From Prosapia bicincta (Eukaryota > Arthropoda > Insecta > Hemiptera > Cercopidae), in the NCBI GenBank assembly GCA_036971475.1, contig JBAIZL010000002.1, positions 348,751,082-348,815,081 of the forward strand: a stretch of DNA of 64,000 bases, written 5' to 3'. This document shows positions 2,211 through 64,000 of this stretch, in pieces. Made by a program: the position numbers and the translations under genes. The notes below the pieces were generated by a model that did no database searches, was not told the origin of the DNA, and saw nothing but the letters and a program-made list of their open reading frames with translations. Within the stretch, counting starts at the first letter, position 1; every line of letters begins with the position of its first letter.

Positions 2211-2259
2211 ACTCACTCCTAAATATAAAAAAATAGTATTTCTTATACACATGGGGTTT

Positions 2260-4972: not shown

Positions 4973-5939
4973 TTTCTATCGTTATTAACCATTATTGGGT
5001 TCGCTATGTAGATGATGGAATGTATATATCAAACAATAATATTAAAAATTTAACAAATATTTTGGATAAAATAAATAAAATTAATAATAAAATCAAATTT
5101 ACTTATGAAATTGAAACAAATAATAAAATAAATTTTCTAGATTTAACTATAATAAGAATAAAATGAAAAATTTGAATATATGATATACCGTAAACCAACT
5201 TTAACAAACCAAATTATACCAAATAATTCTAATCATCCATATAATAAAAAATGGCTGTTTTATATAACTTATTATATAGAATGCATAAAGTACCCATGAA
5301 TGGAGAATATAAAATTAGAGAAAAAAACATAATTTACCAAATTGCATTAGAAAACGGTTGTAAAAAGAAAACTGTTGACAAACCTAATTATAATATTTTT
5401 AATAAACAAAATAATAATTTAATTTGCAATAGTAATAATAATACAATATGGACTTCATTTTTATTTATAGGCCATGAAATAAAAAAATATCACAAAATTA
5501 TTTAAAAACACAAATATCAAAATTGCATACAAAACTAATAACAAAATAATAAACATAATAAATAACAATAATAAAATAATTAATATGCATGAAAAAGGTG
5601 GTGTTTATAAATTAGAATGCGAAAACTGTAATAAAGCTTATACAGGTCAAACCAAGAAAAATTAAAAGAAAGATATAAAGAATATTTGAATGCCTATATT
5701 AATCCAGAAATATATAAATCAAATTTTGCAAATCATTGTATTAATAATAAGCACCAATTTCCAAATATTGAAAATAAGAAACTTATAAAAGAAATTAATA
5801 AGGGATTAAGAAGGAATATATATGAAGCATTCGAAATATATAAATACAATAATAATAACCAATTATTAAAAGAACAAATACAAATACATTCTAAATTTGA
5901 TACTATATTGAATGTCTATAATGTTACAGCAACAAAATA
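4973..5939 (+). pseudogene. Penelope-like element fragment, unit 2
   Basis: This is a near-exact copy, shifted by 3,729 bp, of the fragment in the first unit. It contains the same YVDD region, the same family-specific motifs and the same frame breaks separating frames 5,251-5,505 and 5,686-5,940. Because both copies share these lesions, the fragment was already broken when the unit was duplicated. It cannot make a working endonuclease. Confidence 0.88.
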
Positions 5940-8900: not shown

Positions 8901-8979
8901 TTGAATATATGATATACCGTAAACCAACTTTAACAAACCAAATTATACCAAATAATTCTAATCATCCATATAATAAAAA

Positions 8980-9669
8980 ATGGCTGTTTTATATAACTTA
9001 TTATATAGAATGCATAAAGTACCCATGAATGGAGAAAATAAAATAAGAGAAAAAAACATAATTTACCAAATTGCATTAGAAAACTGTTATAAAAAGAAAA
9101 CTGTTGACAAACCTAATTATAATATTTTTAATAAACAAAATAATAATTTAATTTGCAATAGTAATAATAATACAATATGGACTTCATTTTTATTTATAGG
9201 CCATGAAATAAAAAATATCACCAAATTATTTAAAAACACAAATATCAAAATTGCATACAAAACTAATAACAAAATAATAAACATAATAAATAACAATAAT
9301 AAAATAATTAATATGCATGAAAAAGGTGGTGTTTATAAATTAGAATGCGAAAACTGTAATAAAGCTTATACAGGTCAAACCAAGAAAAAATTAAAAGAAA
9401 GATATAAAGATTATTTGAATGCCTATATTAATCCAGAAATATATAAATCAAATTTTGCAAATCATTGTATTAATAATAAGCCCCAATTTCCAAATATTGA
9501 AAATAAGAAACTTATAAAAGAAATTAATAAGGGATTAAGAAGGAATATATATGAAGTATTCGAAATATATAAATACAAAAATAATAACAAATTATTAAAA
9601 GAACAAATACAAATACATTCTAAATTTGATACTATATTGAATGTCTATAATGTTACAGCAACAAAATAA
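8980..9669 (+). CDS. PLE GIY-YIG endonuclease remnant, 229 aa
   Basis: This is the longest coding remnant of the PLE. Residues ~1-110 are an Asn/Lys-rich linker between reverse transcriptase and nuclease. At ~115-135 the sequence GVYKLECENC followed by AYTGQT gives the paired G-x-Y and Y-x-G signature of GIY-YIG nucleases, with the CxxC spacing typical of PLEs. KERYKDYL then N-F-A-N-H-C continue the fold. In PLEs this domain nicks target DNA. The start Met is only the first ATG after a frameshift, since the recognisable PLE sequence (YRKPT, NSNHP) lies just upstream in another frame. The frame is very AT-rich (Asn, Lys, Ile). Expression is doubtful. Confidence 0.72.
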   Translation: MAVLYNLLYRMHKVPMNGENKIREKNIIYQIALENCYKKKTVDKPNYNIFNKQNNNLICNSNNNTIWTSFLFIGHEIKNITKLFKNTNIKIAYKTNNKIINIINNNNKIINMHEKGGVYKLECENCNKAYTGQTKKKLKERYKDYLNAYINPEIYKSNFANHCINNKPQFPNIENKKLIKEINKGLRRNIYEVFEIYKYKNNNKLLKEQIQIHSKFDTILNVYNVTATK

Positions 9670-21500: not shown

Positions 21501-21641
21501 GAAGAACGCCGCATCATGTATTACCTCAACACGCATTATAAATATCAACGCTCCGCTATGAAGAACGCCACATCGTGTTTTACCTCAAAACGCCTTATAA
21601 ATATTAACGCTACGCTAGGAAGAACACCGCATCATATTTTA
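12549..21641. repeat. 59-bp satellite array, about 154 monomers, with higher-order structure
   Basis: The monomer (attacctcaacacgcc, ttataaatatc, aaagctccgc, tatgaagaac, gccgcatcatgt) repeats every 59 bp for 9.1 kb. Rare variants recur at multiples of 59: 'acacgtcatg' at 17,281, 18,638 (1,357 = 23 monomers) and 19,818 (1,180 = 20 monomers); 'tatgaataac' at 14,654, 15,834 and 19,964; 'acctcatcac' at 17,511 and 18,868. The right edge (about 20,460-21,560) is plainer and dominated by a 'cgcattat' variant. Homogenised higher-order repeats with a monomeric flank resemble centromeric or heterochromatic satellites. No frame is long enough to suggest coding. Confidence 0.97.
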
Positions 21642-28490: not shown

Positions 28491-28736
28491 TTAAGTTTTA
28501 TAATAATGAAGAAACAAAATTGGATTGTAATGTCATAATGAACTATAAGGAGGAAAGATTAGGAATAATAGAAACAAAATGTTGGAATTAGAGAATATAA
28601 AACCCGACCAAACGAGTTAATAGAGATTATCTATAAGTATGAACAAATTTGTAGTGAGCAACCAGGGTTAATTACTACCTATGAGCATGAATTCACCGTA
28701 ACTGATACGAGACCATACAAGCAAAATAGTTGGCCT

Positions 28737-30554
28737 GTGGCAATTAAATTTAGGGAGGCAGTCAACACTGAAATAGAAAGGGTGCTGAAATTAAATATTA
28801 TAGAAAGAGCCAATAGTCCATACGTAAACAGAATAGTACCTGTGTTTAAAAAGGATGGCACAGTCAGGATCTGCTTAGATGCTAGAGAAATTAATAAGAG
28901 ATCGTTACCAGACTATGAAGGAAACTTACCGATTCAAGATCTACTGACAAAATGTAGTGGTTATAAAGTTAAGTCTTCTATCGATTTGACCAGTAGCTTT
29001 TGGCAAATCCCATTAAAAACCAACTGCAGGGACTTTACGGGATTCCTACATAATGGACTGTGTTATCGTTTCAAAACGGTACCATTTGTATTAAGCTCTA
29101 GTCTAGCTAGTCTTACAAGGAGTTTAGATTCCATACTAACAAAGGAAGCAAGGAAATTTTTGATTATTTACGTTGATGACATTTTATGTTTGTCTAAATC
29201 ATTCGATGAACACCTAGAACAACTAGAGATAATTTTTAAGATTTTTAAAGATGCAAACGTAACTGTCAATTTCAATAAGTCGCAGTTTTGTAGAAGGGAG
29301 CTTGAATATTTAGGACACACTTTAAAAGTGGAAGGAATTCAGCCAAGTGAAGAAAAGGTCAGAGCCATAAACCAATTTCCAAGGCCTAGAAATTCGAGAC
29401 AAATAAAAGGATTTCTCGGGCTCATAAATTTCTATCACCGTTTTGTAAAGGACAGCGCATCAATTACCGCACCATTACAACAACTGTTGAAGAAGGGATG
29501 TAGGTTCAAATGGTCTAAAGAACAAGAAGATAGCTTTATACAAATAAAGAGGATATTTTTAGACCGGGTTATGTTAGCACATCCAATACTAAATAAACAG
29601 TATTACCTGCAGTGTGACGCGAGTGGATATGCTTTAGGCGGACAATTATTCCAATATGATGAAGAAGAACGTATTGCCGTGATTGGGTACACAAGTAGAA
29701 CATTTAAAGGAGCTGAACTGAACTACAGTACGACAGAGAAGGAACTTCTGAGTATTGTGCATAATCTCAAAAAATTCAGATGTTTTGTGTTGGGGAACCC
29801 TTTGACGGTGATTACAGATAATAAGGCGCTATCATACATTAACAACTGTAAACTGTTAAACGCTCGTATGACCCGCTGGATGTTACTTATACAGGAGTAT
29901 AACTTTGAAATAAAATATTGCAACGGAAAAGATAATATTGTAGCCGACGCATTAAGCAGACACCCTGGTGAAGACAACATAGAAATAAATCAAGACAGTA
30001 ATTTCATTCAAATTGCAACAATACGTAATAAATTTGACCACAAAGTTTTGGATATGTTGAAACATATACAGACATTTCAAGACAAAGACCATAAAACAAA
30101 ACTTATAGTTAATAAATTAAGGAATTCATCGGACAAATTACACCAGCATTACAAATTATGGGAAGGCAAGTTATATCGTCGAGATAAAGGTCATTTCAAG
30201 TTATACATACCAGACAATATCAAAAGGAATCTAATCACGGAAATACATACTCACTTTGGCCATTTAGGTATTAACAAGAGTTATCAAACATTTAAAGATG
30301 ATTTCGCAGCGGATCATCTAAGTAAGGACATCGAACAAATAGTCAAATCATGTGAAATATGCCAGAAATCCAAACATGACATACGACATAGAGTTGGGGA
30401 AATGGATTGTATCATACCAAAAAACAAAGGAGAATTGTTATCTATGGATTACTGTGGTCCTTTACCAAAAGGAAAAAGTGGTGCAAAATATATTTTGGTT
30501 ATCATTGACGTATTCGCTAAATACGTACAGCTTTATAAAGTCAATATGTTATAA
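28737..30554 (+). CDS. pol: Ty3-type pol: reverse transcriptase, RNase H, truncated integrase
   Basis: 605 aa; the frame is open upstream to about 28,630, so the ATG is not the original start. RT: VPVFKKDGTVRICLDAR (~residues 35-52), SSIDLTSSFWQIP, SSLASLTRSLD, and an intact IIYVDDILC catalytic motif. Next come LGLINFYHRFV (connection), RNase H (LQCDASGYALGGQLFQ, STTEKELLSIV, ITDNKALSYI, NIVADALSRHP), then the integrase zinc finger (HTHFGHLG with CEICQKSK) and the first catalytic Asp in LSMDYCGPLP. The frame stops at a TA tract before the second Asp and the Glu, so integrase is dead. RT and RNase H look structurally complete. Confidence 0.92.
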   Translation: MAIKFREAVNTEIERVLKLNIIERANSPYVNRIVPVFKKDGTVRICLDAREINKRSLPDYEGNLPIQDLLTKCSGYKVKSSIDLTSSFWQIPLKTNCRDFTGFLHNGLCYRFKTVPFVLSSSLASLTRSLDSILTKEARKFLIIYVDDILCLSKSFDEHLEQLEIIFKIFKDANVTVNFNKSQFCRRELEYLGHTLKVEGIQPSEEKVRAINQFPRPRNSRQIKGFLGLINFYHRFVKDSASITAPLQQLLKKGCRFKWSKEQEDSFIQIKRIFLDRVMLAHPILNKQYYLQCDASGYALGGQLFQYDEEERIAVIGYTSRTFKGAELNYSTTEKELLSIVHNLKKFRCFVLGNPLTVITDNKALSYINNCKLLNARMTRWMLLIQEYNFEIKYCNGKDNIVADALSRHPGEDNIEINQDSNFIQIATIRNKFDHKVLDMLKHIQTFQDKDHKTKLIVNKLRNSSDKLHQHYKLWEGKLYRRDKGHFKLYIPDNIKRNLITEIHTHFGHLGINKSYQTFKDDFAADHLSKDIEQIVKSCEICQKSKHDIRHRVGEMDCIIPKNKGELLSMDYCGPLPKGKSGAKYILVIIDVFAKYVQLYKVNML

Positions 30555-49299: not shown

Positions 49300-51282
49300 A
49301 AAAAAAACAAAATGCGTTTCAACGTAAAGCTGACAGAGGAAAGTTGTCTGTTTTGGTTTTCCCAGCTTAAATGAAAAGCACTTGAATTATGTCCAAGATT
49401 ACAAAAAATTGATTTAAATATTGTTAACTGCAACGTTACTTCTATTACAATTATGTCGTTTTAATTTTTAAATACAAATTAAAAGATTTTACGGAAGATA
49501 ACGAATTTAGTTTGGGCAGAAGATTGAATACTCTTTATGAAAAATAAAATAAAATTACACTGACCATAATTAACACTTGCAAAAGATACTATTTCAGAAA
49601 AGTAACTGATGACATACAAAAATACAGTTATTAATTGTATTGTGTGATTTGTCGAAAAATTTTAACAGTTTATACATTTATGAAATCGGGGCAACACAAT
49701 ATATTTGTATAACAAGCAAAACCGAATACGCAAGTTTCTACATTTAATACTTTAAGAAAAACGAACTTGTGAAAACTAATTCTTTACGAAGTGTGAAAAC
49801 AACCACGAAAAGTATAATATTTAATTTTATAAAACATAACTTATATCTCAAGATAATAACAATTATTTGACATACAAATGCGTCAATAAATAAACGAATG
49901 TATCGGAAGCTTGTGTTTGCTTTATTTTTAAACAATTAGCTAAACTCACATGTATTAACAATGCCTTACAGAGAAGCCCTTTAGTAGACATCTGAATAGT
50001 AGTACTGGTCTCTGTAATAGCTTACGCACAACTTTAATTTTAAAATTATAATTATAAGTCACGTTATAAATTTTCTTGGCGTAAATGAACTATTCCCATA
50101 ATGGAAATTACGTTTAATATTTTTGAAAAGTACAATCTGTGACTGTTTTAACGTACAAAGCCCCACCCCCGATGGTGCGCCGCTTTACAAGTATGCAAGT
50201 TCTTTCATGCTTGAGCGGATACAACAGCTACATCGCCTAGTTCCTTCTAGAAATAAAGCGAATAGAAATTACTGGTAGAAGCAAGAAGATATATATAGGA
50301 TGTCTTATGCATTAAGAATATTAGTTTTTACAATGTAACGAAAAGAGCAAACATTTAGTAACAGTGACCGTGGGTATTAAAGGGTAAAGAGACTATTATT
50401 TATTATAACATACTATTTATAAACAATAAACTCTGGTTAAATAATAATAAATAATACTCATAAACCTAGTTCTAGAGGCTTAACATGTGCCTTGAAAGAT
50501 GGTTAGTTGGTCACCGAAACCTATGTTCATCAGGTTAAAATAAAAATATTTGTTGAGTGTGAAAATAATAGCAGCCTCAAAGTGTGTGAATTAATAAATA
50601 GTTATTTAGTCTTAAACGCCTCGAGACTTATAATAACTGGTCCTCTACGTGAAAAAGAATTTTGGTTTTAAATAAGTAAAATAATCGACATACTCCAAAC
50701 AGCCAATAATATTTTTAAGAAAAAGCCACATGCTGGGTATAAGAAATGTATAATAAGATTTGTATCTGCGGGAACAAGAAATTTTGTTTCATTCAAAATT
50801 GTTAAACTTTTGCCCATTTGTACATATTTTTATGAATAAATAAATAATATAAACAAGTAATATATGTTGACTTGGGTTTAATTGCATTCTGGGTCACGAT
50901 AAGGAATTTTATCCTGAAGTACTTGATACATGATATAAATTTATATGATGTTTAAAAATCTTTCTTCAGTTTATTTTTAACTGAAAATAACATATATGTA
51001 GTCAGAATGAATTATCGTTTTTGCATAAATGCATATTCTTATCGTTGAGTACCTGGCATTTTATGTATTGCTGTTTATTTTGTCACATTCTGTGAAGATT
51101 AGGGTTGTATATTAGACAGCAAAATCATTATAGAGGAAGGAGATCCCGTTTAAAGAGCATGTAAACGCAATTAAAAGCCAAACATATAGAAATATAATCT
51201 CGCTTCGTACTGTACTTTAGATAGAACAAAACGAAAAAGAAGTTAAAGGACGTATAAAGAGTATGTAAACGCATTTATAAAC

Positions 51283-51283
<1 letters not shown>
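49300..51283. other. Non-coding stretch
   Basis: AT-rich. A short direct repeat ('aagagcatgtaaacgca' at about 51,156 and 'aagagtatgtaaacgca' at about 51,257) is the only pattern noticed. No gene. Confidence 0.45.

Positions 51284-51328
<45 letters not shown>
51284..51328. repeat. TA microsatellite
   Basis: A (TA)n tract lies about 100 bp beyond the 3' end of the minus-strand LINE remnant and may descend from its tail. Confidence 0.92.
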
Positions 51329-51330
<2 letters not shown>

Positions 51331-51429
51331 TGTATTGTATCTGATTTACTCCCATTCTAATCACTACTGCCCCTCAGTAAATGTGTAGTGTTAAATATAA
51401 ATATAAGCCCCACCAGATTCCCATGTCCT

Positions 51430-52155
51430 TTGACCAGCTATACAGCAACTATGAGTTGAGGTCTACTTAAGGAGAGCAGTTCTTTGCCCCACAAGTCTCC
51501 CGAGTAACCCCACAGTACCTTGAATTTTGTTGCACCGTAAAGTCGCATTCCATTCTTCCCTGCACAACCTGTATATATGTGCCGTGATCCTCTTGCGCCC
51601 CTCCTGAGGCGGCATGTCCACTGCCCTCAGCAACGGCCCTTGAGTTATACACCCTTGTTTTGCTAAGGCGTCAAATCTCTCAATCCCTATACAGGCAGAA
51701 TGTCCTGGAATTCAGGTTAGGTTGAACGAATTATACTTACTCCTCTCTGCTAGAGAATATATAGTCCCAGCCACCAGCCTAGAGCTGGTACTAACCTTAT
51801 GTAAAGCCTTCTGAGCTGCCTGACTGTCCGAGCAAATCCAGATGGTCCTGCCCCTCTTGCCAGACCCTATTATTTCCTCAGCACATAGTTTGATCACAAG
51901 CACCTCCCTCTGGAAAGCAGAGTTGTAGTCTTCCAGGCGATGACAAAATCTGTCTTGGTGTCTCGGTCCACTAAATTCTGCTCGCACTCCTTCCTTCATC
52001 TTGGAGCCATCCTTGAACCAGATTTCACCATGTTGGGGTCTACACTCCGCCCATGCTTCTCTTGCATATGGATTTTGTAATTTCCTTTTTCCTTTTTAAG
52101 TGGCAGTATTTTATTCTGAGCCTTTAGTAGTAGAAGTTGGGTTACTTGAGCGCAC
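51430..52155 (-). pseudogene. LINE (non-LTR retrotransposon) RNase H and 3' end, left part
   Basis: Reading leftwards, frames give EIWFKDGSKM, LEDYNSAFQREVLVIK, CAEEI, RGRTIWICSDSQAAQKAL (catalytic D-E-D pattern of RNase H), SSRLVAG and then, in another frame, IERFDALAKQGC. This is the RNase H domain typical of Jockey/I-type arthropod LINEs. A stop interrupts the 'WVPGHSGI'-type segment. The LINE resumes on the far side of the 11.4-kb element at 63,627-64,000. The longer frame 52,388-51,996 is a chimera of the inverted repeat and this LINE. Confidence 0.8.
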
Positions 52156-53285
52156 CCACCCCTAACTCGGCCGCTACGTAACCTAGGACTATAGGGGTAG
52201 TTTTGGATGATGCAGGAGGTCATCCCGGCCGCGACCCCAGACCCGGGGGTGGTTTCGACCACGTCTAGAGGGGTGGGGGGTAGTTTTTCGAAAAAATTTT
52301 TATTGTAACCTAACTCGGCCGCTACGTAACCTAGGACTATAGGGGTAGTTTTGGATGATGCAGGGGGTTGACGCCAACCCTCACCCAACCCCTAAGGGTC
52401 GTTTTGACCATGCCTAGAGGGGCAGGGGCGGTAAATGGAAAAAACTAATTCCAACCAGCTAACCTAAGCTAGCCAAAATGTATCCAACCCAACCTAAGTG
52501 TTGGGGGACATCTCAGCTACGTTTAGGACCATCCCCGGGGGTTGTCATGGACGAAGGCAGCCCTGAAAGACCTTGATCATAGACAATGGTGCTCTTTTGG
52601 CTACGTCTAGATGTAGTTATTGGAAAACCCCGCTAGCCAAATTGTATCTAACCCAACATACTCCTAATAACAAGGGCGACCTTAGCTACGTTCAGGACCA
52701 CCCCATGGACGAAGGGGCCTATGATTGGCGTTGATCATAGACTATGGGGTGTATAATCGACTAACCTAAGCCAGCCAAAATGTATCTAACCTACCCCTAG
52801 TAGATTGTGCGATGTCAGCAACGAACAGGACCATCCCTGGGGGATGTTATGGACGAAAGGCGGCTCTGAATGACCTTGAGCATGGAACCGGGGCCTAATT
52901 GACTACGTCTAGAGGTGGTTATTGGAAAAAACCTAATCAGGCAAGCCTATGACGTAACAACCTGACCCATGGACAGCCACGTTCAGGACCCTCCCCCGGA
53001 GGTGGCTACCGGCGAGGGGTTAACTTGTGGAAAGATTTTATATATATGACGATGTATCTGCGCTCGAATGACTCTAGGTAGTAAGCCTACAGCTATAATG
53101 ATATGACCGATACGGGGCAAACGGTCATCAATGCCAAACTCAAATTTTGTCTATGCTACAAAATAATAAACATTGCGACAAAGCCTTATATAGGAAGACG
53201 TCTGACCGTGTGCCAGACGTGTACAGACAGCGATAACGCGATATCTAAAAACCGCAATGACAACCGGTGACCGCTATAGCAAGCC
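52156..53285. repeat. Left terminal inverted repeat, ~1.13 kb
   Basis: It begins CCACCCCTAACTCGG and pairs with the right end. The outer ~840 bp match closely ('gcaagcctatgacgtaacaa' at about 52,942 mirrors 62,768-62,789). The inner part is more diverged but still recognisable ('acaaagccttata' at 53,179, 'ggtgaccgctatagc' at 53,266-53,280). Internally it holds sub-repeats: a ~54-bp block at 52,162 recurs at 52,311, and 'tagccaaaatgtat'-type words recur at 52,471, 52,633 and 52,772. Confidence 0.85.
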
Positions 53286-53768
53286 TAAAACCCGCGCGGC
53301 TATGTCGTTTTGATTACTGCATCGATATACTATGTAATATCGTCATACCAAAACATACATATATAATAAAAAGTCAGCTATGTATACACCCTACAGCCAA
53401 AAATGTGTTTAAATATAATAGGATTAGGCTGATATAGTTTAAGTAAACAGGTAGCTTTTATGGATATATTCTATAATTGTAAATAGGCTTAGATATAAAG
53501 GTCCATGGAGAAACACTAATAAAGAGGCCAATCACATAACATGAATAAATATATGCTATAAAACGAACCCAACTATCTATTCAACAGAGTGGCTTAGCAA
53601 TATAAGAGCAGTATAAACATATAATATTGGATAAGGCTAACGATATAAGGAATCGAAAAGGGTAGGTATATGAAATAATATATACAATAAGTATATTCAG
53701 CATGATGATATATTAAATAAACATATAACAATAATTTTACAGTGCATAGATAAAAATTGTTCTCAATA
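53286..53768. other. AT-rich spacer between left TIR and RING gene
   Basis: No gene seen. It would hold the 3' end of the minus-strand transcripts, but no clear AATAAA signal is visible on that strand. Confidence 0.4.
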
Positions 53769-54476
53769 TTACAAATATAATTTAAATGTATCGATGATCC
53801 GAGATCTGCAATGTGGGCAGCGAATACATCTTGAGAGACAGGTTAAGCAAAAGACATGTCCGCATGGTGTGGCAACAGCGTTGCGAGGGTTCTCACAACA
53901 TATAATGCATAAGCCAAACTCCGCCGGTCGTGGCTGAAGGCAAAAAAAAAGACAATTAGTAACAAGTGTATATGCATATACAAATCCTGTAAGAAACAAT
54001 ATGATTAGTAAATAGGTCCAGATATCCTGAAAGAAAAGCCAATTGAAATAATATGAAAATCCACCTACATTATTGGTACGCTGGACAGTGTAGTCTCCAG
54101 CCACCACAATATCCTTTAGGAACCGTCTCGTCATGCCCCAAACGTTATACGCAAAGGCCCGGCTTGTCTTATAGTAAGATTTTGAGGCAGCCGACCGCAG
54201 ATCCCTAATAGCCAGCTGGAGCTGCATTAAGGTGTAATCCAGCGTCTGTATGCATGTGCGGGGTGAAGGCGGGTTCCTCGGTGGATGAGAAACCATTAGG
54301 AAATCGTGCAGGCGAAACGAAAACGAATTATCACAACTATAGCTGGGTCTATGATCTTCCTCATCGCTGTCCGTATCAATGCCGGGCGGTCGGGAGGGTA
54401 AATCTCCTGGAGACGAGCCCAAAGGTAGTAGTAGAGGCGAATAGGATAGTGAAGAATCTGAAAGCGCAGTGTACGC
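53769..54476 (-). CDS. RING-finger membrane protein (main exon)
   Basis: Likely E3 ubiquitin ligase. The C-terminus is a C3HC4 RING: CIICC, then CGHVFCLTC and CPHC, about 38 residues, placed at the very end as in viral and IAP-type RING proteins. Before it lies a hydrophobic region (IWTYLLIILFLTGFVYAYTL) that should span a membrane, with a shorter one (YYFNWLFF) ahead. The N-terminal part is acidic and Pro/Ser-rich (DSDEED). There is no ATG at the 5' end. A good splice acceptor (TTTTTTCTAG at about 54,486-54,477) opens this exon, and the frame joins in phase to a 13-codon exon at 54,849-54,887. Predicted protein about 248 aa. Confidence 0.75.
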   Translation of the reverse strand, partial: AYTALSDSSLSYSPLLLPLGSSPGDLPSRPPGIDTDSDEEDHRPSYSCDNSFSFRLHDFLMVSHPPRNPPSPRTCIQTLDYTLMQLQLAIRDLRSAASKSYYKTSRAFAYNVWGMTRRFLKDIVVAGDYTVQRTNNVGGFSYYFNWLFFQDIWTYLLIILFLTGFVYAYTLVTNCLFFCLQPRPAEFGLCIICCENPRNAVATPCGHVFCLTCLSRCIRCPHCRSRIIDTFKLYL

Positions 54477-54848
54477 CTAGAAAAAAGAATCTAAATAAAC
54501 TACCATTGAATATATTCTATGATCTAGGCCTCAGATAATTTGAACATGACGCTACCGCGTGTCCAAAATATGTATTAAGCGCTGTTGAAAATAGACTACC
54601 ACTCATTCAATATACTGTGTGATCTAAGCTTTACAAAAATTGAAAAAGACTTGACATTAACATATAATATCTCGTGTCCAAAATATATATTAAACGTTAT
54701 TGAAAATAAACTACCACTCATTCAATATAGTGTATGACCTAGGCTTTACAAAAAAAAAAAATTAATTGTGAAAATATTCCCTCCTATAAATAAACACCCA
54801 ATGTGTCATCTAGACTTAACTTAATTTGAAAAAAGAATAGATACTTAC
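54477..54848 (-). other. Predicted 372-bp intron in the RING gene, containing ~115-bp repeats
   Basis: It starts GTAAGT and ends TTCTAG on the minus strand. Inside, a ~115-bp block repeats: 'cgtgtccaaaata' at 54,558 and 54,673, each followed by 'taccactcattcaatata', with a third, partial copy at 54,494-54,545. The repeats do not code. Confidence 0.5.
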
Positions 54849-54887
54849 AATGCGAGTGTTTATAGGTTGTTGTGACGTAGACGCCAT
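54849..54887 (-). CDS. First exon of the RING gene (predicted, 13 codons)
   Basis: An ATG at 54,887 opens 13 codons ending exactly at a consensus donor (GTAAGT, 54,848-54,843). Phase 0 matches the acceptor at 54,477. The exon overlaps the last 28 bp of the 200-aa gene in another frame, so both must be made from overlapping transcripts. An RNA-level check is needed because short exons are easy to mispredict. Confidence 0.5.
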
Positions 54888-55461
54888 CTCTCGTGAATGT
54901 ATGACCTGCAGATTAACGGATCACAATAGTTGATCGAAGAATAGCTCTCTTCAGGGGTTGATTGTAGGAAGTCTTCAAAACTAAATAATTTAAATAAAGG
55001 GCTTAAACAGATATCGCACCAGTTATCAGAGTCCCAGATATGGTATAAAAAATCGCAGCCGTCCACCTCAGCTATAGAGTACGTGTAACCGGCTCTTGTG
55101 ATGTCGAAACTCTCTGCCTGACGGAGCACAAAGTAACTCAAACACTCTCGGCAAATATTATTAGACAGACCTGTGTAGTGAAATTTAATAAAGTTGAAAA
55201 TTGTCCTCTCATCGACAAATACAGGCACCTCGTCCGGGTGGTTCATCAACATTAAAAATTCTGAAAAATTTAAATTATTGAAATCTATAGACGAAAAATC
55301 AAAATCAGAGCTATCACAAGACTTCATCAGTACATAGTCTTTAAAAGATTTTATCAACGCTTGCTTTACAGATACAGGTAAGTCCAAACTGTCTATATCA
55401 TTTCTGTTCTGTACGCATGCGCAGACCTCAATAGCGCATAGATTAAACAAAGATAGAGGCA
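54860..55461 (-). CDS. BC-box (SOCS-box-like) protein, 200 aa
   Basis: Residues 4-13 read SLFNLCAIEV, an exact fit to the BC-box consensus ([APST]-L-x3-[CSA]-x3-[AILV]) that binds Elongin C in cullin-RING ligases. LDLPVSVKQAL, ~15 residues later, resembles the following cullin-box segment. The rest is Asp/Phe/Ser-rich with Cys pairs (CRECL, WCDICL) and no catalytic motif seen. This suggests a substrate adaptor redirecting host ubiquitination; function is inference. There is no ATG at the 5' end. The exon opens at an acceptor (TTTTACAG, ending 55,462) and begins TG; the proposed donor at 55,822 leaves a final A, so the start codon would arise at the splice junction. Confidence 0.68.
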
Positions 55462-55822
55462 CTGTAAAATTTAAGAAAAAATAAACATGCTGAAACGTTT
55501 TAAAGAATAATATTACTCTGTAATGGCCAAATTTACAGTCTGGCCGATATGTTTGATAACAGTTAAAGATTTGCCTAAAATAGAGCTCAAATCTTCCACA
55601 GTCAACGCCGCAGCGTATCGCTTGGGAAGAAAGACAGCGCGTCTGTCTTCATCATCTACCTGTAAGTCTACAAGTACGGTGGTACCATACTTTGCCTCGT
55701 CAAAACGCGCATTTACAATTTTAAATGCCTTGCCTATCTTTAGATCGCGTATAGGCACAGAATCTACAGAATTTAAAGCTGAAAACTTTGCCGACACTGA
55801 TGTAGACATTTTTACTACTTAC
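55462..55822 (-). other. Predicted 361-bp intron enclosing the 98-aa gene
   Basis: Donor GTAAGT at 55,822-55,817, acceptor TTTTACAG ending at 55,462, both near consensus. Retaining it yields the 98-aa protein; removing it yields the BC-box protein with a junction-made start codon. This would be a simple switch between two products from one promoter. Confidence 0.5.
55513..55809 (-). CDS. Small conserved-looking protein, 98 aa (possible OB-fold / ssDNA-binding)
   Basis: Starts at an ATG in good context (AAAAATGTC) about 90 bp downstream of a TATA box. VDSVPIRDLKIGKAF and KYGTTVLVDLQ followed by VFLPKRYA suggest an all-beta protein. Similar small proteins sit next to PolB genes in arthropod elements as far as I recall, and a single-strand DNA-binding role is plausible but unproven. 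No cysteine or catalytic motif is present. The whole gene lies within the predicted intron (55,822-55,462) of the BC-box gene, so unspliced RNA would encode it. Confidence 0.65.
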   Translation of the reverse strand: MSTSVSAKFSALNSVDSVPIRDLKIGKAFKIVNARFDEAKYGTTVLVDLQVDDEDRRAVFLPKRYAAALTVEDLSSILGKSLTVIKHIGQTVNLAITE

Positions 55823-55895
55823 TGGCAAACACACACACACAGATCACTTGAAACACAGACTATGCAAAAACACTATATCTCCACTGTATATAATG

Positions 55896-55949
55896 TTTTA
55901 TACATAGCTGTGGAACAGTCCATTTGAGAGGTGAGTGGACGAGTCCAAG
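55896..55949 (-). promoter_or_regulatory. Promoter of the small-gene block: TATA box and shared upstream motif
   Basis: TATAAAA at 55,902-55,896 lies ~87 bp before the 98-aa start codon. Immediately upstream (55,904-55,947) is a ~44-bp motif with AGCTGTGGAACAGTCCAT and the dyad TGGACGAGTCCA (55,936-55,947). Nearly the same motif, in reverse, lies upstream of the polymerase TATA box. Confidence 0.55.
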
Positions 55950-55959
55950 CAAGTTGGAC

Positions 55960-57399
55960 TGATCCATAATTACGTCACAACCACGACTGTTGATTACAGC
56001 AAGGCGGGCGATGCTGTTTGTAGAGGTAAACACATCGTATCCGATGAGAAGTTTAAATACAAGTTAACACACAATATAAAATGCACGGTTTGACTAGGGC
56101 CTAACAAACAGTATCCGATTGACTATGGTTTATCTCGTAGTATCCGAGAGGTAGAGCCTCATGCTCGACGCCAGACCTCAGGTAAAGCCACCCAGGCCTT
56201 AGGTAAAGCTACCTTGGAGTGGTAAAACAACTACCAATCAATAACCTAACACAATAGTATACATCCTGTATTAAACCCTTATGTATGTTACGCAACAAGC
56301 TAGTAAGCAAGGACACCTACATTCTCTCTCTGTATTAATCCAATATCTATGTTACCCTATATTAGCCTACAGATTGTGTTTAGCCAATATGCACGTGAAC
56401 CTGTATTAAGTATATATGGGTGTTAACCTACATAGGCATACATACTGTGTTAGGTCGAAATACCTGTAAATCTACACACATTCTGTATTAAACCAATATG
56501 TATGATACGGTACATAGGCCTACAAGTCAATAAACAGTGTTATTACGCTTCATTGCAGGTATAGATCATACACACAGCTCGACAAATAAATACTTGTTTA
56601 AAACTTTTACAGTAATATTGTTACGACCGCAATAGCACACTCTGGACATAACCGCAGCAAATGACGTCAAACACAATGTCGGTCAAGACGGCTTCTAACA
56701 ATATGTTGGACAGTCATCTGTATAGGATTAACTTGCCACCTATATTTGTTATCTACAGGGCAGTTACATACCAGTGCCTATGATCATGTTCTGACGCTAG
56801 TCATTTAACAATTTTTCAATGGGTGTGCATTGAACCTTCAAGAGTGTGGACATCCTCTAGCTGAGCCTAATGTAGTGTGTTCCTTCAAGCGACTATGTTT
56901 ACATGTGCTTGCACTTAATGCAAAGGTCAACACAGGATAAGGTAATTAGTAATAGTCATTTGACAATAGAAAGGTATAATTACAATAACATTATGATCTG
57001 AACAATGTACAAAACTAAACATTCAATCTTAAATCTAATTACAATTGCTTTATACACAATTAAAAAGTTTAGACATATCTAGGTAATTAATACATCAACT
57101 CAGCCTCTAGACTAGTTTAACACTACCTCTTACTGACAGTGTTTCTGTAAAGTGTATAATTTAGGCTAAATTTAACTCATGTCATAGGTCTAATGCTAAA
57201 TCTAACAAAAATATAAACTGATTAGGGCAAAACACAGCAAAGTCATTGATAGTATTCCCAGGTCTCTGTAAAGTCTAAAATTCTAAATCTGTATGTTTTA
57301 CAATATTGGCAATATAACAGGTGCTTCAAATACATGATTACAAGTATAAAATATATATATAACACAAAGGTTATTGCAATAATGTTGTCTATACTTTGT
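55960..57399. other. Central non-coding region with degenerate repeats
   Basis: No gene. From about 56,220 to 56,540 a loose repeat recurs ('ctgtattaa' followed by 'ccaatatgtatg' or variants, then 'cctacatagg'-like words), roughly every 85-100 bp. The region could hold 3' untranslated sequence or replication signals; nothing specific is seen. Confidence 0.5.
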
Positions 57400-57636
57400 T
57401 CACACAAATATCCCCCGAAGGGGAAAGGAGAGGCCCCTGCCCCGCCTACTCCATCGTGACATCCTCCAAATCAAAATGATGCCTCCGTTCAACCCTCCTG
57501 CTTGACAAGTACATTCACCCTTACTAACCTTTACGGCCACTCCAGAGGGGATGCATACAACCTTACGGACTACGTAGAGTCGCGCCAGTGGGCTTTCATT
57601 CGTCTCGTGCACATCACCCGTCAAGCAGGGGGTCAA
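57400..57636 (-). pseudogene. GC-rich coding-like island, possible zinc-binding remnant
   Basis: A 78-codon frame in an otherwise AT-rich spacer. It reads LARLYVVRKVV then VKVSKGECTCQAGG. C-x-C-x-A-G resembles the start of a SWIM zinc finger, found next to YqaJ-type exonucleases in arthropod DNA elements, but the later Cys and His are not in frame (a +2 frame has RRHHF). No ATG start. I regard it as a possible decayed gene or an exon; function unknown. Confidence 0.3.
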
Positions 57637-57639
57637 ATT

Positions 57640-58038
57640 ACTTTACAAAAACATATGTGTGTGTGAAAAAATCAACATTCGTCAGCTATTCATATTGTTT
57701 ACTCATTCGTGGAATTTTGTAGCCATAAGTTGGTTAGTCTGAATATTTATAGAAAACATAGCAAATCATTGTGCATAATTAATACTTATATATAATCTAG
57801 TTGAATATTTATACAATATATAGATAATCAATGTGCATATTTAACACTTATAAATATATAGTCTAGCGTCTGTTAAGCAGACTGTTTATACAAGACAGTA
57901 ATCAATGTGTATAAATAATACCTATATATAATCTAGCTTTTGTTAGGCTGAATTACAATATGTTTATCTAACCACTTTACAGATTTAATACATATTAATC
58001 TATTAGCGTTTGCCAAGTTGAATATTTACAATGCATAG
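57640..58038. other. AT-rich degenerate repeats downstream of polB
   Basis: 'gaatatttata', 'atcaatgtgcata' and 'atatataatctag' recur about every 70-90 bp from 57,730 to 58,010. No gene. Confidence 0.55.
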
Positions 58039-59322
58039 CTACTCGCTCATGCGTGGACGCTTGTAACCGTAAGGCAGTGTGTTGTATCCGTCGTCCTCGT
58101 CCAACTTCCTCTTTGCACCAGTTAACCTGAATATTTTACTTTCAGACGTGGTGATGACGTCACGATCTTCTGTGCGACGTATCCTATCACTGGTGGTTAC
58201 TATAGGATCGCTACCCTCCAAAACCATCCGTTTCATCGATTCAAAATTGACCGAGGCTGATGTGCCGAGATTGAGAGTCAATAATTTGACTTTGCACACG
58301 GTCACGTGTTTGTTTTTATTTGTAGACCATACTTTGTAGGCGTAGACTTTAGGACCTCCAGAGACGAATTCGGTGATGTAGGAACCATGGCCGTATTCCG
58401 AGAGCTCGTCAGTCATCTGGCCTAAATAATCTCCAGTCACCACTCTTGGCAATCCCTCCCTATGAAGGTATACCACACTGTCTGTATCCTTGTAGATACG
58501 TTGTAGGCCGAGAGCGTCCATATATTCGTAAAGCTTTAGCCGGGCGTGGTCGGTGGTGTAGACGGCAAGCACAACGTTGACAGTGGGCAGTATCTCGCAA
58601 ACGTCATCCGCAAACTGCCAATTCACTACCAAAACGTCATCGTTTACTTCCTGAATGTGGTTTACGTCAATGGATGGGCTCTGCAGCATTTTAAACAGTT
58701 CCTGAGGCTCCCTGATAATCGACGTTTTAGTCTGATTCTCCCTCTGTCCAAATTTTCCCCAAAACGAGTTCAACATTAGTTTGGCCAGTGAGCGGGATCC
58801 TTCATTTTTGGCGATCTTTGTTTGATCCAAACGGACACCCTCGTTGGTGAAATAATCCTCCACATACTTTGCCCTGTCTTCTTTGGTTTTGCACCAGCCG
58901 GGGTAGCCTGACGCTTCCTGTTTCATCTTTAGAAATTTATTGATAAAATCTTTAAACAGGCCGTCGTTCCCTGAAGCCATCTCGTACTGCCACATCTCGT
59001 GCATTTCCACAACAACATAGCCCTTCTCTACAGCCTTGCGTATCTCGTCCATGGTCCATGTGCCTGTCAGAGCGCGCTCGTCCACCGTATGGTCGCATTC
59101 GCCAGGATTGAGAGTTTCGCCGCATGTCCGACATAGTACAAACATCAACTTGTTATTCATCTTTAGCGGCAATACGGGGTGGTAGAGCGATGTAGGCGGC
59201 AGAATTGCGCACTTGAGCAACCCTTCGGCGCTCATCCCCAGTTTCCTGCATTCGTCGTTGCCAGCTTTGGATGTCCAATCGGGTATTTTCCGTACTTGCA
59301 TACCCACGGGTAGAGGGAACAC
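58039..59322 (-). pseudogene. polB: DNA polymerase B, C-terminal part (after frameshift)
   Basis: This frame carries the rest of the polymerase: LKCAILPPTSLYHPVLP and LCRTCGE (~35-69), motif B KLMLNSFWGKFG (~181-192), and motif C YKDTDSVVYL (~277-286) with both catalytic Asp. The C-terminus is basic (KRKLDEDD, YKRPRMSE), typical of Polinton-like PolB and possibly a nuclear signal. It overlaps the N-terminal frame by 91 bp in the -1 relation. The listed Met is not a natural start. All polymerase motifs are intact, so the only obvious lesion is the frameshift, which might be an assembly error, a real one-base deletion, or less likely a programmed shift. Confidence 0.85.
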
Positions 59323-61778
59323 ACGTCGGCGTACTGGATGGTTTCGTCCTCTTTAGCGGCGCAGTAGGTCTTTATATTTCCAGTCCTGCCGCCGAAGAAT
59401 GCGTGGCGGGGGTTGAGAGGCGCTGCGTTGAGGACGGGGTGGTTGTCGAGATAATCCATGGACTTGTCGTTTTTCTTCTGCTGCCTAAATACACACTCCC
59501 ACATCTCAACGACCTGGTAGCCGGCCTGTGAGATTTTAGCGTTCTTGGCCCTTGTCCTTTCGAAGCGTGCGTTGTGTGTGTCCGCCGGATCGTCCTCCAG
59601 GGCAGCGTCACGTCCGTTGGGGAAGCACTTGGGGCAGCCGTGGAACCAGCATCCTTGGAACTCGTACACAGGGTTTGTCTCTATGCACAGCCCGTCGACC
59701 TTTAGGCCGTCGACCTTCATCTCTCGGCCGTTACCAGCGTGACGTATTCGCAGGTTGCCCTCTGTTTCGAGCCACAACAACCATTGCAGAGCGATAGACG
59801 ATTGTTTATCGGCCAGACGGTAGCCGGCTTTCGGAAGTATGGCTATGGTGTTTGGTTTCAAAAAATTTCTTCTAAATGCCAAGTTACATGCGCTGGCGAT
59901 AGTCACCGCCTCCAGAAACGGATCAACATTGCACTCTTGTAGGAAACAGGCCCTGAATTTCAGGCACGCCTGTGCCAGGATCTCCACGTCCGATAGGCAG
60001 TACTCGAATATCTCCTTTTGAAAGTCAAAGACGTACTCGTTGCGCACCTGCTCGTCGTGCCATCGTGAGAACTCTTCCTGATTCTTGTCAAACATAGAAT
60101 CGGGGCAGTAGTACTCTTTGGCAGGCATGGGGCCTACATAGGATTGGTTTGCCAGGGTGTTGAAGAGGTGCGGAAAATATCCCTTTTTCATTTCCGGAGG
60201 CAGATCGAAAGCTTTGGGCAGTTTTGACAGAGCCATAGGCATGTAGTTGAGAGAGTCAATGAACTTTGTATTGTCAATCTCCATCAGGATGACCTTGGTG
60301 CCCCGCATAATCAGTTCGGGTGTGAATTGTGTCTCTTCTATCACGTACTTTAGGATAAACTGGAAGTCAAAGGCCTGGCCGTTGTGAGCGATTACAATCA
60401 CCTTCTTGTACGCCTTTCGCACTTCCATAAGGTACGCCATGAACCCGTTGACGGGATCCTCTCTGAACACTCGGGTTCTATCCGTGCACTGTAGGCAAGC
60501 GCCTCCGTCGTTCATACACATCCAACAGTATTGCTGGGATACGCACAGGTTGACTCGATGCACACGAGCGTCTTTAATAACTTCGTCTTGTCGAGTTTCA
60601 AGATCAAAGAAGACAAACAGAAAGTTGGTTGATAGCGGGCGACGTGTATCAATTCTCATGTAACACAGATAGCCTGCAGGCATGTAATCCTTACACACTT
60701 TACAATAGTTCTCGCCGCACACGTGAGGAGCTTTTCTACCCTTCTTTAGAATGTATCTATTACAGTCTGGGCACTTTCTTATAGCCCGGCATACGCTCTT
60801 CATGTGCGCCTTAAAACAGGCTCTATTTTGAAACTGTCTATTGCAGTCGCCGCACAGGATGCCGTCGTCTTCAAGCACACAGGGCGGGATCCTCTTGCAA
60901 GAGTTGCATTGGGCTGAGCATCTATGGCGTAGGCGATCATCGTATGGGACATGACACAATTCGCAATAGTAATTACAAGCGAAGGCACTCGTCAGACTTG
61001 TAACAACATTGAAGTGGTTGGCGTGATATAACAAGTTTAGCCTGTGCATGGGGTTCTGAACGTCACCTTCAAAGTAGATATCACGACCTTTGCTGCCGTA
61101 ATTGTAAACGGTAATTTTATAATCGGCGAGTAAATCTTGAAACTGTCGCAACTCTCGAATGCCTGCACCGCCGTCTCCTATCTGCACCCCGGCGTCAGTC
61201 ATTAGCTGGTTTGCTCTGTTGGTTTGACGTTTGCATCTGTCCTTACACACAAGCTTGTACTCTGGGTCTCTTAACGCATGCGCTATAGCTACAACCAGAG
61301 CACGGGGTAAACAGAGGTTGTCTGTGTTTTTAATCGTAACAATCCCATTCCTACAGTGCGATTCTTCTATGAAGTTATTATACATTCCGGGTCTTGTACG
61401 CCCACGCCCTACAGGTACTTTAACCCTGGTACAGGTCACTCTGAAGGTGTCGTCGGCTTTAAAAGTATTTGCATTGCTCTGGATTATTGAGCCAAGGATG
61501 TTAAACAGGGCGTCCACAGTTGTCGCAGAGGCAGCTCTAAATGCGATATATCCAGGGGCGTGGTTTCGGAGATTTAGGCTCTGCATGGTGAAGCCCAATT
61601 GTATGTCTTCGGTAGCGTTGTTCTTCATAGTCTCCAAGATTTCCTCTAGTCCACGTCTGACCCACATCAGCTCGTTTTCAGCCGCGGGTACGGGGTTAAA
61701 GTTGAATGTCACTCTAGTACCGTTCAAACGGAATTTTCGTACATATGTCTGTTCCGTTGATACAACACGTACGGCCAT
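59232..61778 (-). pseudogene. polB: Protein-primed family B DNA polymerase, N-terminal part with OTU-like region
   Basis: Start taken at the ATG in strong context (AAAATGGCC, 61,778); the frame is open 6 codons further to a splice-acceptor-like TATAG. Numbering from the longer frame: ~155-270 has NTDNLCLPRAL and later HANHFNVV, with the Cys and His spacing of OTU cysteine proteases. ~278-375 is Cys-rich (several CxxC). 3'-5' exonuclease: FFDLET (~396), AHNGQAFDFQF (~470), YCLSDVEIL (~599). Then the Polinton-like FQGCWFHGCPKC (~713) and motif A YADVCSLYP (~822). It stops soon after KYPIGHP; the polymerase continues in the next frame from the overlap at 59,232-59,322. The enzyme would copy the linear element from a terminal protein. 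Confidence 0.88.
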
Positions 61779-61795
61779 TTTAGAGATATAATTCA

Positions 61796-62128
61796 CTATA
61801 ATAGATCTTAAATTAACACAGGTATATGCTATATATATTCAAATTGATTCTATGTGAAATAGTTTTGAGAAAATAACTAGAATAAGATTACTAAGATTGA
61901 CAATGGTATATGTTGAACAATTTAAAATTAAATCTAGTTGTTTGATAATACTCGTATTTGCTAGATAATTATTAAAATATTGTGATTAATTTGTTTTCAT
62001 AAATATTCAGATCAACAATGATATTAGATTATACGAGTTATTCGACTCACAAGTCGCAATGAATAGCGATTGCTTTAATATAGGCTACAGATTTCCCACG
62101 AGAACAAGTAAAAAACAATATAGCTTAC
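61796..62128 (-). other. Predicted 333-bp 5' UTR intron of polB
   Basis: Donor GTAAGC at 62,128-62,123 after a short leader, acceptor ATTATAG ending at 61,796, 17 bp before the polB ATG. AT-rich throughout with no frame. Fits the use of host splicing seen in the small-gene block. Confidence 0.45.
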
Positions 62129-62181
62129 CAGAATGTTTCTTCTTCCAAAGCTGTATAGCAAGTATTGTTTTTCGCGATGAG

Positions 62182-62303
62182 ATTTATACTTCATAAACGC
62201 CTGCCCCTCCATACCAAATGGGATCTCCCGCCGAGATTAATAGAGATCGGTCCATCTCGAATGGACTCGTCCACCCCTCTTGAATGGACTCTTCCACAGC
62301 TAT
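62182..62303 (-). promoter_or_regulatory. Promoter of polB: TATA box and shared upstream motif
   Basis: TATAAAT at 62,188-62,182 precedes a short leader. Upstream, 62,262-62,303 carries the same ~42-bp motif as at 55,904-55,947 but inverted: TGGACTCGTCCA at 62,262-62,273 and ATGGACTCTTCCACAGCTAT at 62,284-62,303. An additional GTCCAT/ATGGAC dyad lies at 62,250-62,266. Shared sites suggest one factor controls both blocks. Confidence 0.5.
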
Positions 62304-62387
62304 TTGTTTACTTTACTAGCCTTCATAATAAATCGATACGTTTGTTGACACAATTACAATAGCCTTGTTTCACAACAACACAGCTGT

Positions 62388-63564
62388 GCCTGCTATAGCG
62401 GTCACCATGTGTCTTTGCGGTTCTATGCGTTATCTCTGCATGGTTGCACATGTAGGTTAAGCTTGTTCACTCAGGCTATAAGGCTTTGTTACACTGTATC
62501 ACCTTTAGAGGTGGGCCATACTAGATAACTCTATATGTTTTTAGTTAATCTGTAGCGCGGGGCGCTAGCTAGTCATGGATCATAGCCCACTGTTTTGTTT
62601 AGCAGTCAACCTGTGGCCCTCGTTACCTGGGTTATACCGTTCAGGATGGGCCCTAGGATCATTCGAGCGTTGATATTTCATATATTAATCAATTATATCT
62701 TACGATATCACCCACGTTGGTACCCACCTCAGGGGCGGATCCTGAGGCTGTCCGTGGGGTAGGTTGTTACGTCATAGGCTTGCCTGATTAGGTTTTTTTC
62801 CAATAACCACCTCTAGACGTAGTCAATTAGGCCCCGGTTCCATGCTCAAGGTCATTCAGAGCCGCCTTTCGTCCATAACATCCCCCAGGGATGGTCCTGT
62901 TCGTTGCTGACATCGCCCAATCTACTAGGGGTAGGTTAGATACATTTTGGCTGGCTTAGGTTAGTCGATTATACACCCCATAGTCTATGATCAACGCCAA
63001 TCATAGGCCCCTTCGTCCATGGGGAGGCCCTGAACGTAGCTAAGGTCGCCCTTGTTATTAGGAGTATGTTGGGTTAGATACAATTTGGCTAGCGAGGTTT
63101 TCCAATAACTACATCTAGACGTAGTCAAATGGGCCCCATAGTATATGATCAAGGTCTTTCAGGGCTGCCTTCGTCCATGACAACCCCCGGGGATGGTCCT
63201 AAACGTACCGGAGATGTCCCATGCACCTTGGGGTTGGTTGGGTTGGATACATTTTGGCTAGTTTAGGTTAGCTGGTTGGAATTAATTTTTTCCATTTACC
63301 GCCCCTGCCCCTCTAGGCATGGTCAAAACCACCCTTAGGAGTTGGATGAGGGTCGGGGTCAAGCCCCTGCATCATCCAAAACCACCCCTATAGTCCTAGG
63401 TTACGTAGCGGCCGAGTAAGGTTAAAATAAAATTTTTTTCGAAAACTACCTCTAAACGTGGTCGAAACCACCCCCGGGTGTGGGGTCGGGGGCGCGTCGA
63501 CCTTCATCGTCATCCAGAACAACCCCTATAGTCCTAGGTTACGTAGCGGCCGAGTTAGGGGTGG
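62388..63564. repeat. Right terminal inverted repeat, ~1.18 kb
   Basis: Complement of the left repeat, ending GAGTTAGGGGTGG. It carries the same internal duplication (near 63,365-63,420 and 63,500-63,560) and the same order of 140-160 bp sub-repeats. The frame 63,458-63,712 runs across the repeat into the LINE and is not a gene. Confidence 0.85.
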
Positions 63565-63626
63565 CTGTCCCAGGGTAAGGGTAATCCTACTTTTAGTGAA
63601 TCAACAAATAGCTGTTTATGACGTTT

Positions 63627-64000
63627 GCTACTTGACCGCACATGGTGTACTTCTCCTTGTAGCTGTTATGCCTCTAAAGAAGTGCCCCTGCACGCGGTAC
63701 AGAACTCTTTAACTAGTTTCTTTCTGTGCCTTGTCCCACCAGACGTTTGAGGCAAAGACCAACTTCGGCACCATAGTGACAGAATAAATCCAGATCATCT
63801 GACGTGAACCCAAACCCCATCTCATGCCTATAGCTCCTCTGCATTGCAAAAACACAGCTATGGCTTTATTTTACGTATCATCCAAGTGCTCACGCCAGAG
63901 TAGTTTCCTATCCAGAATAACTAACAGATATTTAGAGCTCTCAACGTAGCTTATTTTGAAGATGAGTGTCCTTGAATGCATAGTTATCTTTCCGTGCACT
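63627..64000 (-). pseudogene. LINE reverse transcriptase C-terminal region, right part
   Basis: Reading leftwards from the window edge: KYLLVILDRKLLWREHLDD, then FLQCRGAIGMRWGL, IWIYSVTMVPKLVFASNVWWD and ITATRRSTP. These match the thumb and 'YLG..LD..L.W..H' region that follows the polymerase core in arthropod LINEs. Stop codons are scattered through it. Together with 51,430-52,155 it forms one LINE split by the TIR element. It continues beyond the window. Confidence 0.78.

What the first reader, a model, noticed from the sequence alone, without database searches (positions are those of the whole stretch)
52156..63564. Minimal 11.4-kb PolB element with long TIRs but no integrase or capsid genes
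Seen: ~1.15-kb inverted repeats, a protein-primed type PolB and three small genes. Not seen: integrase, capsid, protease, ATPase. Known Polintons and adintoviruses carry these. This may be an undescribed minimal lineage, a non-autonomous derivative that relies on a helper, or an integrated virus with a divided genome as in bidnaviruses.
Basis: partly seen in the sequence, partly recalled or inferred. Interest (0 to 1): 0.88.

Follow-up and report, generated by a model that had tools for sequence, protein, structure and literature searches.

The report
Shrunken Polinton relative without capsid genes
This is a compact piece of virus-like DNA in an animal (probably insect) chromosome that kept the copying enzyme and matching ends of the Polinton/adintovirus group but shows no genes for a virus shell or for integration; it may be a capsid-less relative or a shortened copy, and one missing genome search would tell which.

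Summary
An 11,409-bp element (52156-63564) has inverted repeats of about 0.92 kb (remnant out to about 1.15 kb), a protein-primed-type PolB and three small ORFs on one strand. Pfam saw no integrase, capsid, protease or ATPase in it.

PolB is of Polinton/adintovirus type: 114 homologues up to 65% identical, those with an organism name all insects but one; the vOTU Cys/His pair, reported as kept in polintons and replaced in bidnaviruses, is present. One leafhopper gene model in the same 32-row clade joins PolB to a PLA2 domain like that of a Maverick CAP gene. The bidnavirus-segment idea is therefore unlikely, though viral fold matches alone do not separate the two.

PolB is conserved like its relatives at near-invariant positions (2 of 183 changed), so this is no old fossil. 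No symmetric target duplication was found.

Best reading: a recently inserted, Polinton-derived, capsid-less, integrase-less replicon. A one-off internal deletion of a full Polinton is not excluded: the host-genome search did not complete (21 attempts). New variant of a known kind; interest 0.5.

The parts
52156..53078 (+). left terminal inverted repeat (continuous part)
   Evidence: 89.7% to the right arm over 930 columns; alignment
62652..63564 (-). right terminal inverted repeat (continuous part)
53250..53284 (+). inner remnant of the left inverted repeat (partner 62388-62422)
   Evidence: 85.7%, E 6e-5
62388..62422 (-). inner remnant of the right inverted repeat
52161..52197 (+). 37-bp terminal core, copy 1 (outer left)
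52309..52345 (+). 37-bp core, copy 2 (inner left), identical
63385..63421 (-). 37-bp core, copy 3 (inner right), 1 mismatch
63523..63559 (-). 37-bp core, copy 4 (outer right), identical
59232..61778 (-). PolB, N-terminal piece from its first ATG (terminal-protein-like, vOTU-like, exonuclease, start of palm)
58039..59322 (-). PolB, C-terminal piece in another frame (rest of palm)
55513..55809 (-). 98-aa ORF, similar to the small protein joined upstream of PolB in two hoverfly gene models
   Evidence: 0 of 2000 shuffles as good; phmmer only E 0.084 and 0.099; no homologue by database search at E 1
54860..55462 (-). 200-aa ORF: BC-box-like N-terminus, C-terminal part weakly like NS3
   Evidence: NS3 9e-4, SOCS_box 0.0062, both under cut-off; motif; length against shuffles
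53769..54422 (-). RING-finger ORF with a hydrophobic stretch (first ATG at 54296)
   Evidence: (zf-C3HC4_3 5.7e-10)
55462..55822 (-). predicted intron that would remove the 98-aa ORF (inference)
   Evidence: one of 9 donors paired with one of 4 acceptors listed; no transcript data
55904..55964 (+). 61-bp inverted repeat, arm 1, just upstream of the small-gene unit
   Evidence: 82%, E 2e-10
62245..62303 (-). 61-bp inverted repeat, arm 2, upstream of PolB
55824..58038 (.). 2.2-kb stretch without a credible gene

Best explanation
The element is an endogenous, recently active derivative of the insect Polinton (Maverick)/adintovirus lineage that no longer carries the integration and virion genes. 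Inferred working: transcription from two units on one strand gives PolB and the small proteins; PolB primes DNA synthesis from its own N-terminal terminal-protein domain at the inverted-repeat ends, its vOTU domain cutting the primer domain free; the linear DNA multiplies as a plasmid-like replicon, possibly spreading between cells only with a helper Polinton. The RING protein and the BC-box/NS3-like protein probably act on host ubiquitin pathways. This copy entered the chromosome as a complete linear molecule, without the 6-bp target duplication of integrase-made insertions, most simply by end joining. Shown: ends, gene set, PolB kinship, conserved residues, no symmetric target duplication. 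Inferred: protein priming, plasmid-like life, end joining, roles of the small proteins.
Against: No second copy was seen, so nothing shows that this gene set is inherited as such; the one PolB in the window is this one. I could not read the other genes on the contigs of the relatives, P0001 included. Loss in one deletion just before or after insertion fits nearly as well. PolB is interrupted, so this copy cannot make the whole enzyme as read, and its branch is longer than that of P0001 (0.36 against 0.24 and 0.32 against 0.22). In the viral fold search a bird parvovirid polymerase (E 1.2e-16) follows the adintovirus (6e-18) closely and query TM-scores are low (0.25 or less), so that search does not tell them apart. 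Two of the small proteins have no relatives in the protein search even at E 1. Adintovirus capsid proteins may escape Pfam. A 5-of-6 match (11 bp outside the left end, 8 bp outside the right) remains at the flanks. Arm divergence is uneven (0% to 18%), which makes the age uncertain.
Confidence: 0.5

Rival explanations
1. One-off internal deletion: a full Polinton lost its integration and virion module in one event and this copy is a dead end, not a lineage.
For: PolB and the PLA2-linked relative suggest that at least some kin are ordinary Polintons; PolB is interrupted; a 2.2-kb gene-less stretch (55824-58038) could hold a deletion scar.
Against: No truncated piece of integrase, ATPase, protease or capsid in the 44 leftover pieces scanned with Pfam; a related 61-bp repeat stands upstream of both gene units; no symmetric 6-bp target duplication, which an ordinary Polinton insertion should have.
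Confidence: 0.35
2. Integrated segment of a multipartite bidnavirus-like virus (Bombyx bidensovirus, Vesanto virus), whose capsid genes lie on other segments.
For: Weak NS3 match of the 200-aa ORF (E 9e-4, under cut-off); bidnaviruses carry PolB, NS3 and inverted repeats (PMC4061559, parts 1-2 of 5 read); bird parvovirid and densovirus polymerases are 2nd, 4th and 5th in the viral fold search (E 1.2e-16 to 6.8e-14) and a prawn bidensovirus 10th (3.4e-8).
Against: vOTU Cys and His kept, reported as replaced in bidnavirids (PMC11071308 passages); the closest PolBs by sequence are insect genomic ones or unnamed contigs; 11.4 kb against 3.3-6.5 kb segments in the papers; no helicase or parvovirus capsid match in the element.
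Confidence: 0.08
3. Assembly artefact: ends and PolB from a Polinton joined wrongly, or a collapsed repeat that lost the middle.
For: The window is repeat-rich and reads could not be checked; the PolB frame change might be a sequence error.
Against: Both ends stop at the same base with 43 identical bp; a related 61-bp repeat lies upstream of both gene units.
Confidence: 0.05

Closest known systems
Polinton/Maverick elements and adintoviruses (family renamed Eupolintoviridae, PMC12451622 passages)
   Same: PolB with terminal-protein-like, vOTU-like, exonuclease and palm parts; long inverted repeats; named relatives from insects
   Different: no integrase, capsid, protease or ATPase found; no symmetric 6-bp target duplication; 11.4 kb against 12.7-24.6 kb for intact vertebrate Mavericks (PMC8097293, abstract and passages); ends CCACCCC rather than the AGT repeats of that paper
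Cytoplasmic linear plasmids of yeasts (pGKL type)
   Same: works-like comparison: Polinton-type PolB with vOTU and no virion genes (PMC11071308 passages); inverted-repeat ends of the plasmids are recalled
   Different: here in an animal chromosome; no plasmid-type transcription genes identified; no evidence for a cytoplasmic form
Bidnaviridae (Bombyx mori bidensovirus; Vesanto virus)
   Same: PolB, inverted repeats, a weak NS3-like match
   Different: vOTU active site kept; no SF3 helicase or parvovirus-type capsid match; PolB nearest by sequence to insect genomic PolBs and unnamed contigs; size

Membership tests
[quoted passage not shown]
   DNA_pol_B_2 in both pieces; adintovirus PolB first viral fold match and a weak OTU match, 4boz E 0.028; Cys162 and His261 invariant in 68 of 68 rows. 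PolB is read in two frames.
Polinton/adintovirus (Eupolintoviridae) | terminal inverted repeats | tested here: met
Polinton/adintovirus (Eupolintoviridae) | retrovirus-like (rve) integrase | tested here: not met
   no Pfam match in 5 ORFs, 44 leftover pieces and the 187-codon antisense ORF; longest unassigned ORFs 187, 138 and 108 codons against 310 aa in fall-armyworm Mavericks (PMC5803895)
Polinton/adintovirus (Eupolintoviridae) | double jelly-roll major capsid protein (hexon) | tested here: not met
   an intact intronless capsid gene needs an ORF of several hundred codons (size recalled); none is left. Decayed or spliced remains could be missed.
Polinton/adintovirus (Eupolintoviridae) | packaging ATPase and adenovirus-like protease | tested here: inconclusive
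   no Pfam match, but a protease of about 133 aa (PMC5803895) could be missed by Pfam
Polinton/adintovirus (Eupolintoviridae) | 6-bp target-site duplication | tested here: not met
   no symmetric match of 4-9 bp; three asymmetric ones (two of 4 of 4, one of 5 of 6); no empty site available
Bidnaviridae | vOTU active-site residues replaced | tested here: not met
   both residues kept; criterion from PMC11071308 passages
Bidnaviridae | SF3 helicase (NS1) and parvovirus-type capsid protein | tested here: not met
   no match in the element; they could lie on other segments, which could not be searched
Bidnaviridae | NS3-like protein | tested here: inconclusive
   PF17530 E 9e-4, 19.2 bits against cut-off 25; chance-like matches among the leftover pieces reached E 0.0072; AlphaFold model unusable, pLDDT 41.3
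Yeast-type linear plasmids | capsid-less self-replicating linear DNA outside the chromosome | not testable with these tools
   needs reads or DNA from the host

The most novel reading that the evidence does not exclude
An animal counterpart of the yeast linear plasmids: a stable lineage of capsid-less, integrase-less, protein-primed linear replicons derived from insect Polintons, living as episomes, entering chromosomes only by end joining, and carrying its own ubiquitin-pathway genes (a membrane RING protein and a BC-box protein) in place of virion genes.
Probability: 0.27. Interest if true: 0.82.

Novelty: new variant of a known kind. Interest (0 to 1): 0.5.

Why it matters
Polintons are seen as the hub from which adenoviruses, bidnaviruses, virophages and yeast linear plasmids came (PMC11071308, passages). 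A Polinton relative that lost its virion and integration genes in an animal would be a present-day example of the virus-to-plasmid step, and its gene set would show what such a replicon needs. If it is only a deleted copy, it still records a conserved polymerase with intact ends and an unusual insertion without a symmetric target duplication.

Tried and rejected
Other copies and helper segments: the genome search 'own' with the left inverted repeat was asked (21 of 21 unanswered).

Viral contigs: 8 of 8 scans. PolB N piece (16), C piece (17), A1 (29), A2 (30), A3 (51), 200-aa ORF (101), 98-aa ORF (102), RING ORF (103). Prokaryote genome contigs: two distant contigs, L002 and L003 (29-32%); not used further. 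Phages, protein mode: none.

Protein searches: the 200-aa ORF (22 candidates, none at E<=1) and the 98-aa ORF (9 candidates, none at E<=1). No named adintovirus or bidnavirus came up, so the trees hold no named viral reference.

Structure: the 200-aa ORF model is unusable (pLDDT 41.3). In the PDB second look no OTU entry is among the 50 rows shown; the OTU match appeared only at E 0.028.

Dating: neutral expectation of stops in the PolB pieces was 4.96 at the divergence of the whole repeat (P of none 0.01) and 1.99 at that of the inner repeat (P of none 0.124). The pieces were picked as open frames and the arms diverge unevenly, so I do not use this as an age. That the flanks are two halves of one reverse-transcriptase gene: by eye both look so, but Pfam gave no such match in three pieces, so it stays a lead.

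Weak Pfam matches as a control: in the leftover pieces the best chance-like match was E 0.0072 (yeast metallothionein), so the SOCS-box match of the 200-aa ORF (0.0062) is at noise level by itself and the NS3 match (9e-4) only somewhat better.

Bacterial-type promoter scan was not informative. A DNA fold of the left 305 bp was only mildly more stable than shuffles (z -1.92). Rfam: no match in 51000-64000. NCBIfam and PHROGs added nothing useful. Papers: 7 searches; 'Polinton' with 'leafhopper' gave one unrelated paper, and no paper held two or more of the six terms; this says only that these searches of an open-licence library found no description. Two papers asked for were not held.
Full report
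What is there. The element runs from 52156 to 63564 (11,409 bp). Its two ends are inverted copies: one match of 930 columns at 89.7% (52156-53078 / 62652-63564) and a 35-bp remnant further in. Over 52156-53005 the arms have 782 identical and 53 different columns and 5 gap runs. The difference is uneven: none in the outer 43 bp, 13 of 73 columns in the next stretch, 4 of 278 in 52701-52980. A 37-bp core stands twice at each end; three copies are identical and one has a single change. The hexamer CTACGT occurs 6 times in the left repeat and, inverted, 5 times in the right; 500 shuffles of the left repeat held 0.14 on average and 3 at most.

Genes. The assigned genes lie on the minus strand. PolB is in two overlapping frames (59232-61796 and 58039-59322), both matching DNA_pol_B_2 (8.1e-29, 2.8e-16). 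Downstream lie a 98-aa ORF, a 200-aa ORF and a RING-finger ORF. The RING and 200-aa ORFs, read stop to stop, are longer than any ORF in 500 shuffles. The 98-aa ORF is not long enough to stand by length, but it matches the N-terminal extensions of two hoverfly PolB gene models, P0062 and P0068 (0 of 2000 shuffles as good for each). A plain phmmer comparison with all 114 relatives gave only E 0.084 and 0.099 for these two, with another relative, P0102, at 0.091 between them over a shorter stretch. The 200-aa ORF has a weak NS3 match in its C-terminal half and a weak SOCS-box match at its start (9e-4 and 0.0062, both under cut-off), and a motif of the Elongin BC-box form (the consensus is recalled). 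Predicted splice sites suggest that removing 55462-55822 would take out the 98-aa ORF and give the 200-aa ORF its start codon; the pair was picked from 9 donors and 4 acceptors, so this is inference. A 61-bp inverted repeat (82%) lies upstream of both units.

What is missing. Pfam scans of all 44 leftover ORF pieces of 40 codons or more, and of the 187-codon ORF antisense to PolB, found no integrase, capsid, ATPase or protease (recount). The few matches listed (best E 0.0072, yeast metallothionein) are of other families and under their cut-offs. The longest unassigned ORFs are 187, 138 and 108 codons, wholly or partly antisense to assigned genes, too short for an intronless integrase (310 aa) or ATPase (228 aa) like those of fall-armyworm Mavericks, but not for a protease of 133 aa (sizes from PMC5803895 passages). 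Decayed or spliced scraps that Pfam cannot see are not excluded.

PolB kinship. The N piece found 114 proteins at E<=1e-3: named ones come from Macrosteles quadrilineatus (13), beetles, flies, sawflies and one flatworm (weak); the others are on unnamed contigs. In a FastTree tree of the window and 100 of them the window pairs with P0001 (100) and lies in a 32-row clade (100) with all 13 Macrosteles rows (the window row is flagged for odd letter make-up). Quick IQ-TREE trees of 25 rows give the same pair for each piece (99, 95). One Macrosteles gene model of that clade, P0086, joins PolB to a PLA2 domain (6e-13). It is one automatic gene model, so it shows nearness on the chromosome at best. 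A PLA2 domain is in the CAP protein of fall-armyworm Mavericks (PMC5803895, passages). So at least part of the clade is probably of ordinary Polinton make-up.

Alive or dead. Among 63 relatives of 1225 aa or more (five divergent ones left out, and the piece ends trimmed), at columns where at most one other row differs, the N piece has 1 change in 118 and the C piece 1 in 65, rank 28 and 14 of 64. So PolB was under constraint until recently, and the frame change is recent or an error. Against this, the window's branches are longer than those of P0001 (0.36 against 0.24; 0.32 against 0.22). An old fossil that slowly lost its other genes does not fit.

Insertion. Intact vertebrate Mavericks have 6-bp target duplications, inverted repeats of 46-1,447 bp and sizes of 12.7-24.6 kb (PMC8097293, abstract and passages). 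Here no symmetric duplication of 4-9 bp exists at the ends; three asymmetric matches were listed, two of 4 bp and one of 5 of 6 that lies 11 bp outside the left end and 8 bp outside the right. Without an empty site, a lost or shifted duplication cannot be ruled out. I take end joining of a complete linear molecule as most likely.

Verdict. By kinship of its polymerase the element is Polinton-derived; by gene content it fails the integrase, capsid and target-duplication tests, so I do not file it as a Polinton. It works, most likely, like a capsid-less protein-primed replicon. Whether it is a lineage or a single deleted copy depends on other copies in the host, which I could not search. The host itself is not identified; 'insect, perhaps hemipteran' is inference from the PolB tree.

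Literature. PMC4061559: parts 1-2 of 5 read. PMC8363768, PMC11071296, PMC9896142, PMC12451622, PMC5803895, PMC11071308 and PMC8097293: passages only. Others: search listings only.

Noticed in passing
12551-21635: A 9-kb satellite array of a 59-bp unit, about 154 copies at 89% matches, with strong strand skew.
   Followed up: no
1808-9313: The same set of tandem repeats recurs about every 3.73 kb (1808/5537/9265 and 2366/6095), so a unit of about 3.7 kb appears duplicated in tandem.
   Followed up: no
28572-30551: ORF of an LTR-type retroelement: reverse transcriptase, RNase H and integrase zinc-binding matches; further open frames lie upstream from 26477.
   Followed up: partly
51712-52155 and 63565-64000: Both flanks read by eye like parts of one decayed non-LTR reverse transcriptase on the minus strand, but Pfam gave no such match in three pieces.
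   Followed up: partly
54553-54768: A direct repeat of about 100 bp (83%) between the 200-aa ORF and the RING ORF.
   Followed up: no
proteins P0001-P0021: 17 of the 21 best-scoring relatives sit on unnamed contigs of 4.3-7.9 kb, the other 4 in Macrosteles; whether the short contigs are repeat-broken assemblies or short free molecules is unknown.
   Followed up: no
8977-9666: ORF of 230 codons that looks by eye like the end of a Penelope-type element; Pfam gives no support.
   Followed up: partly
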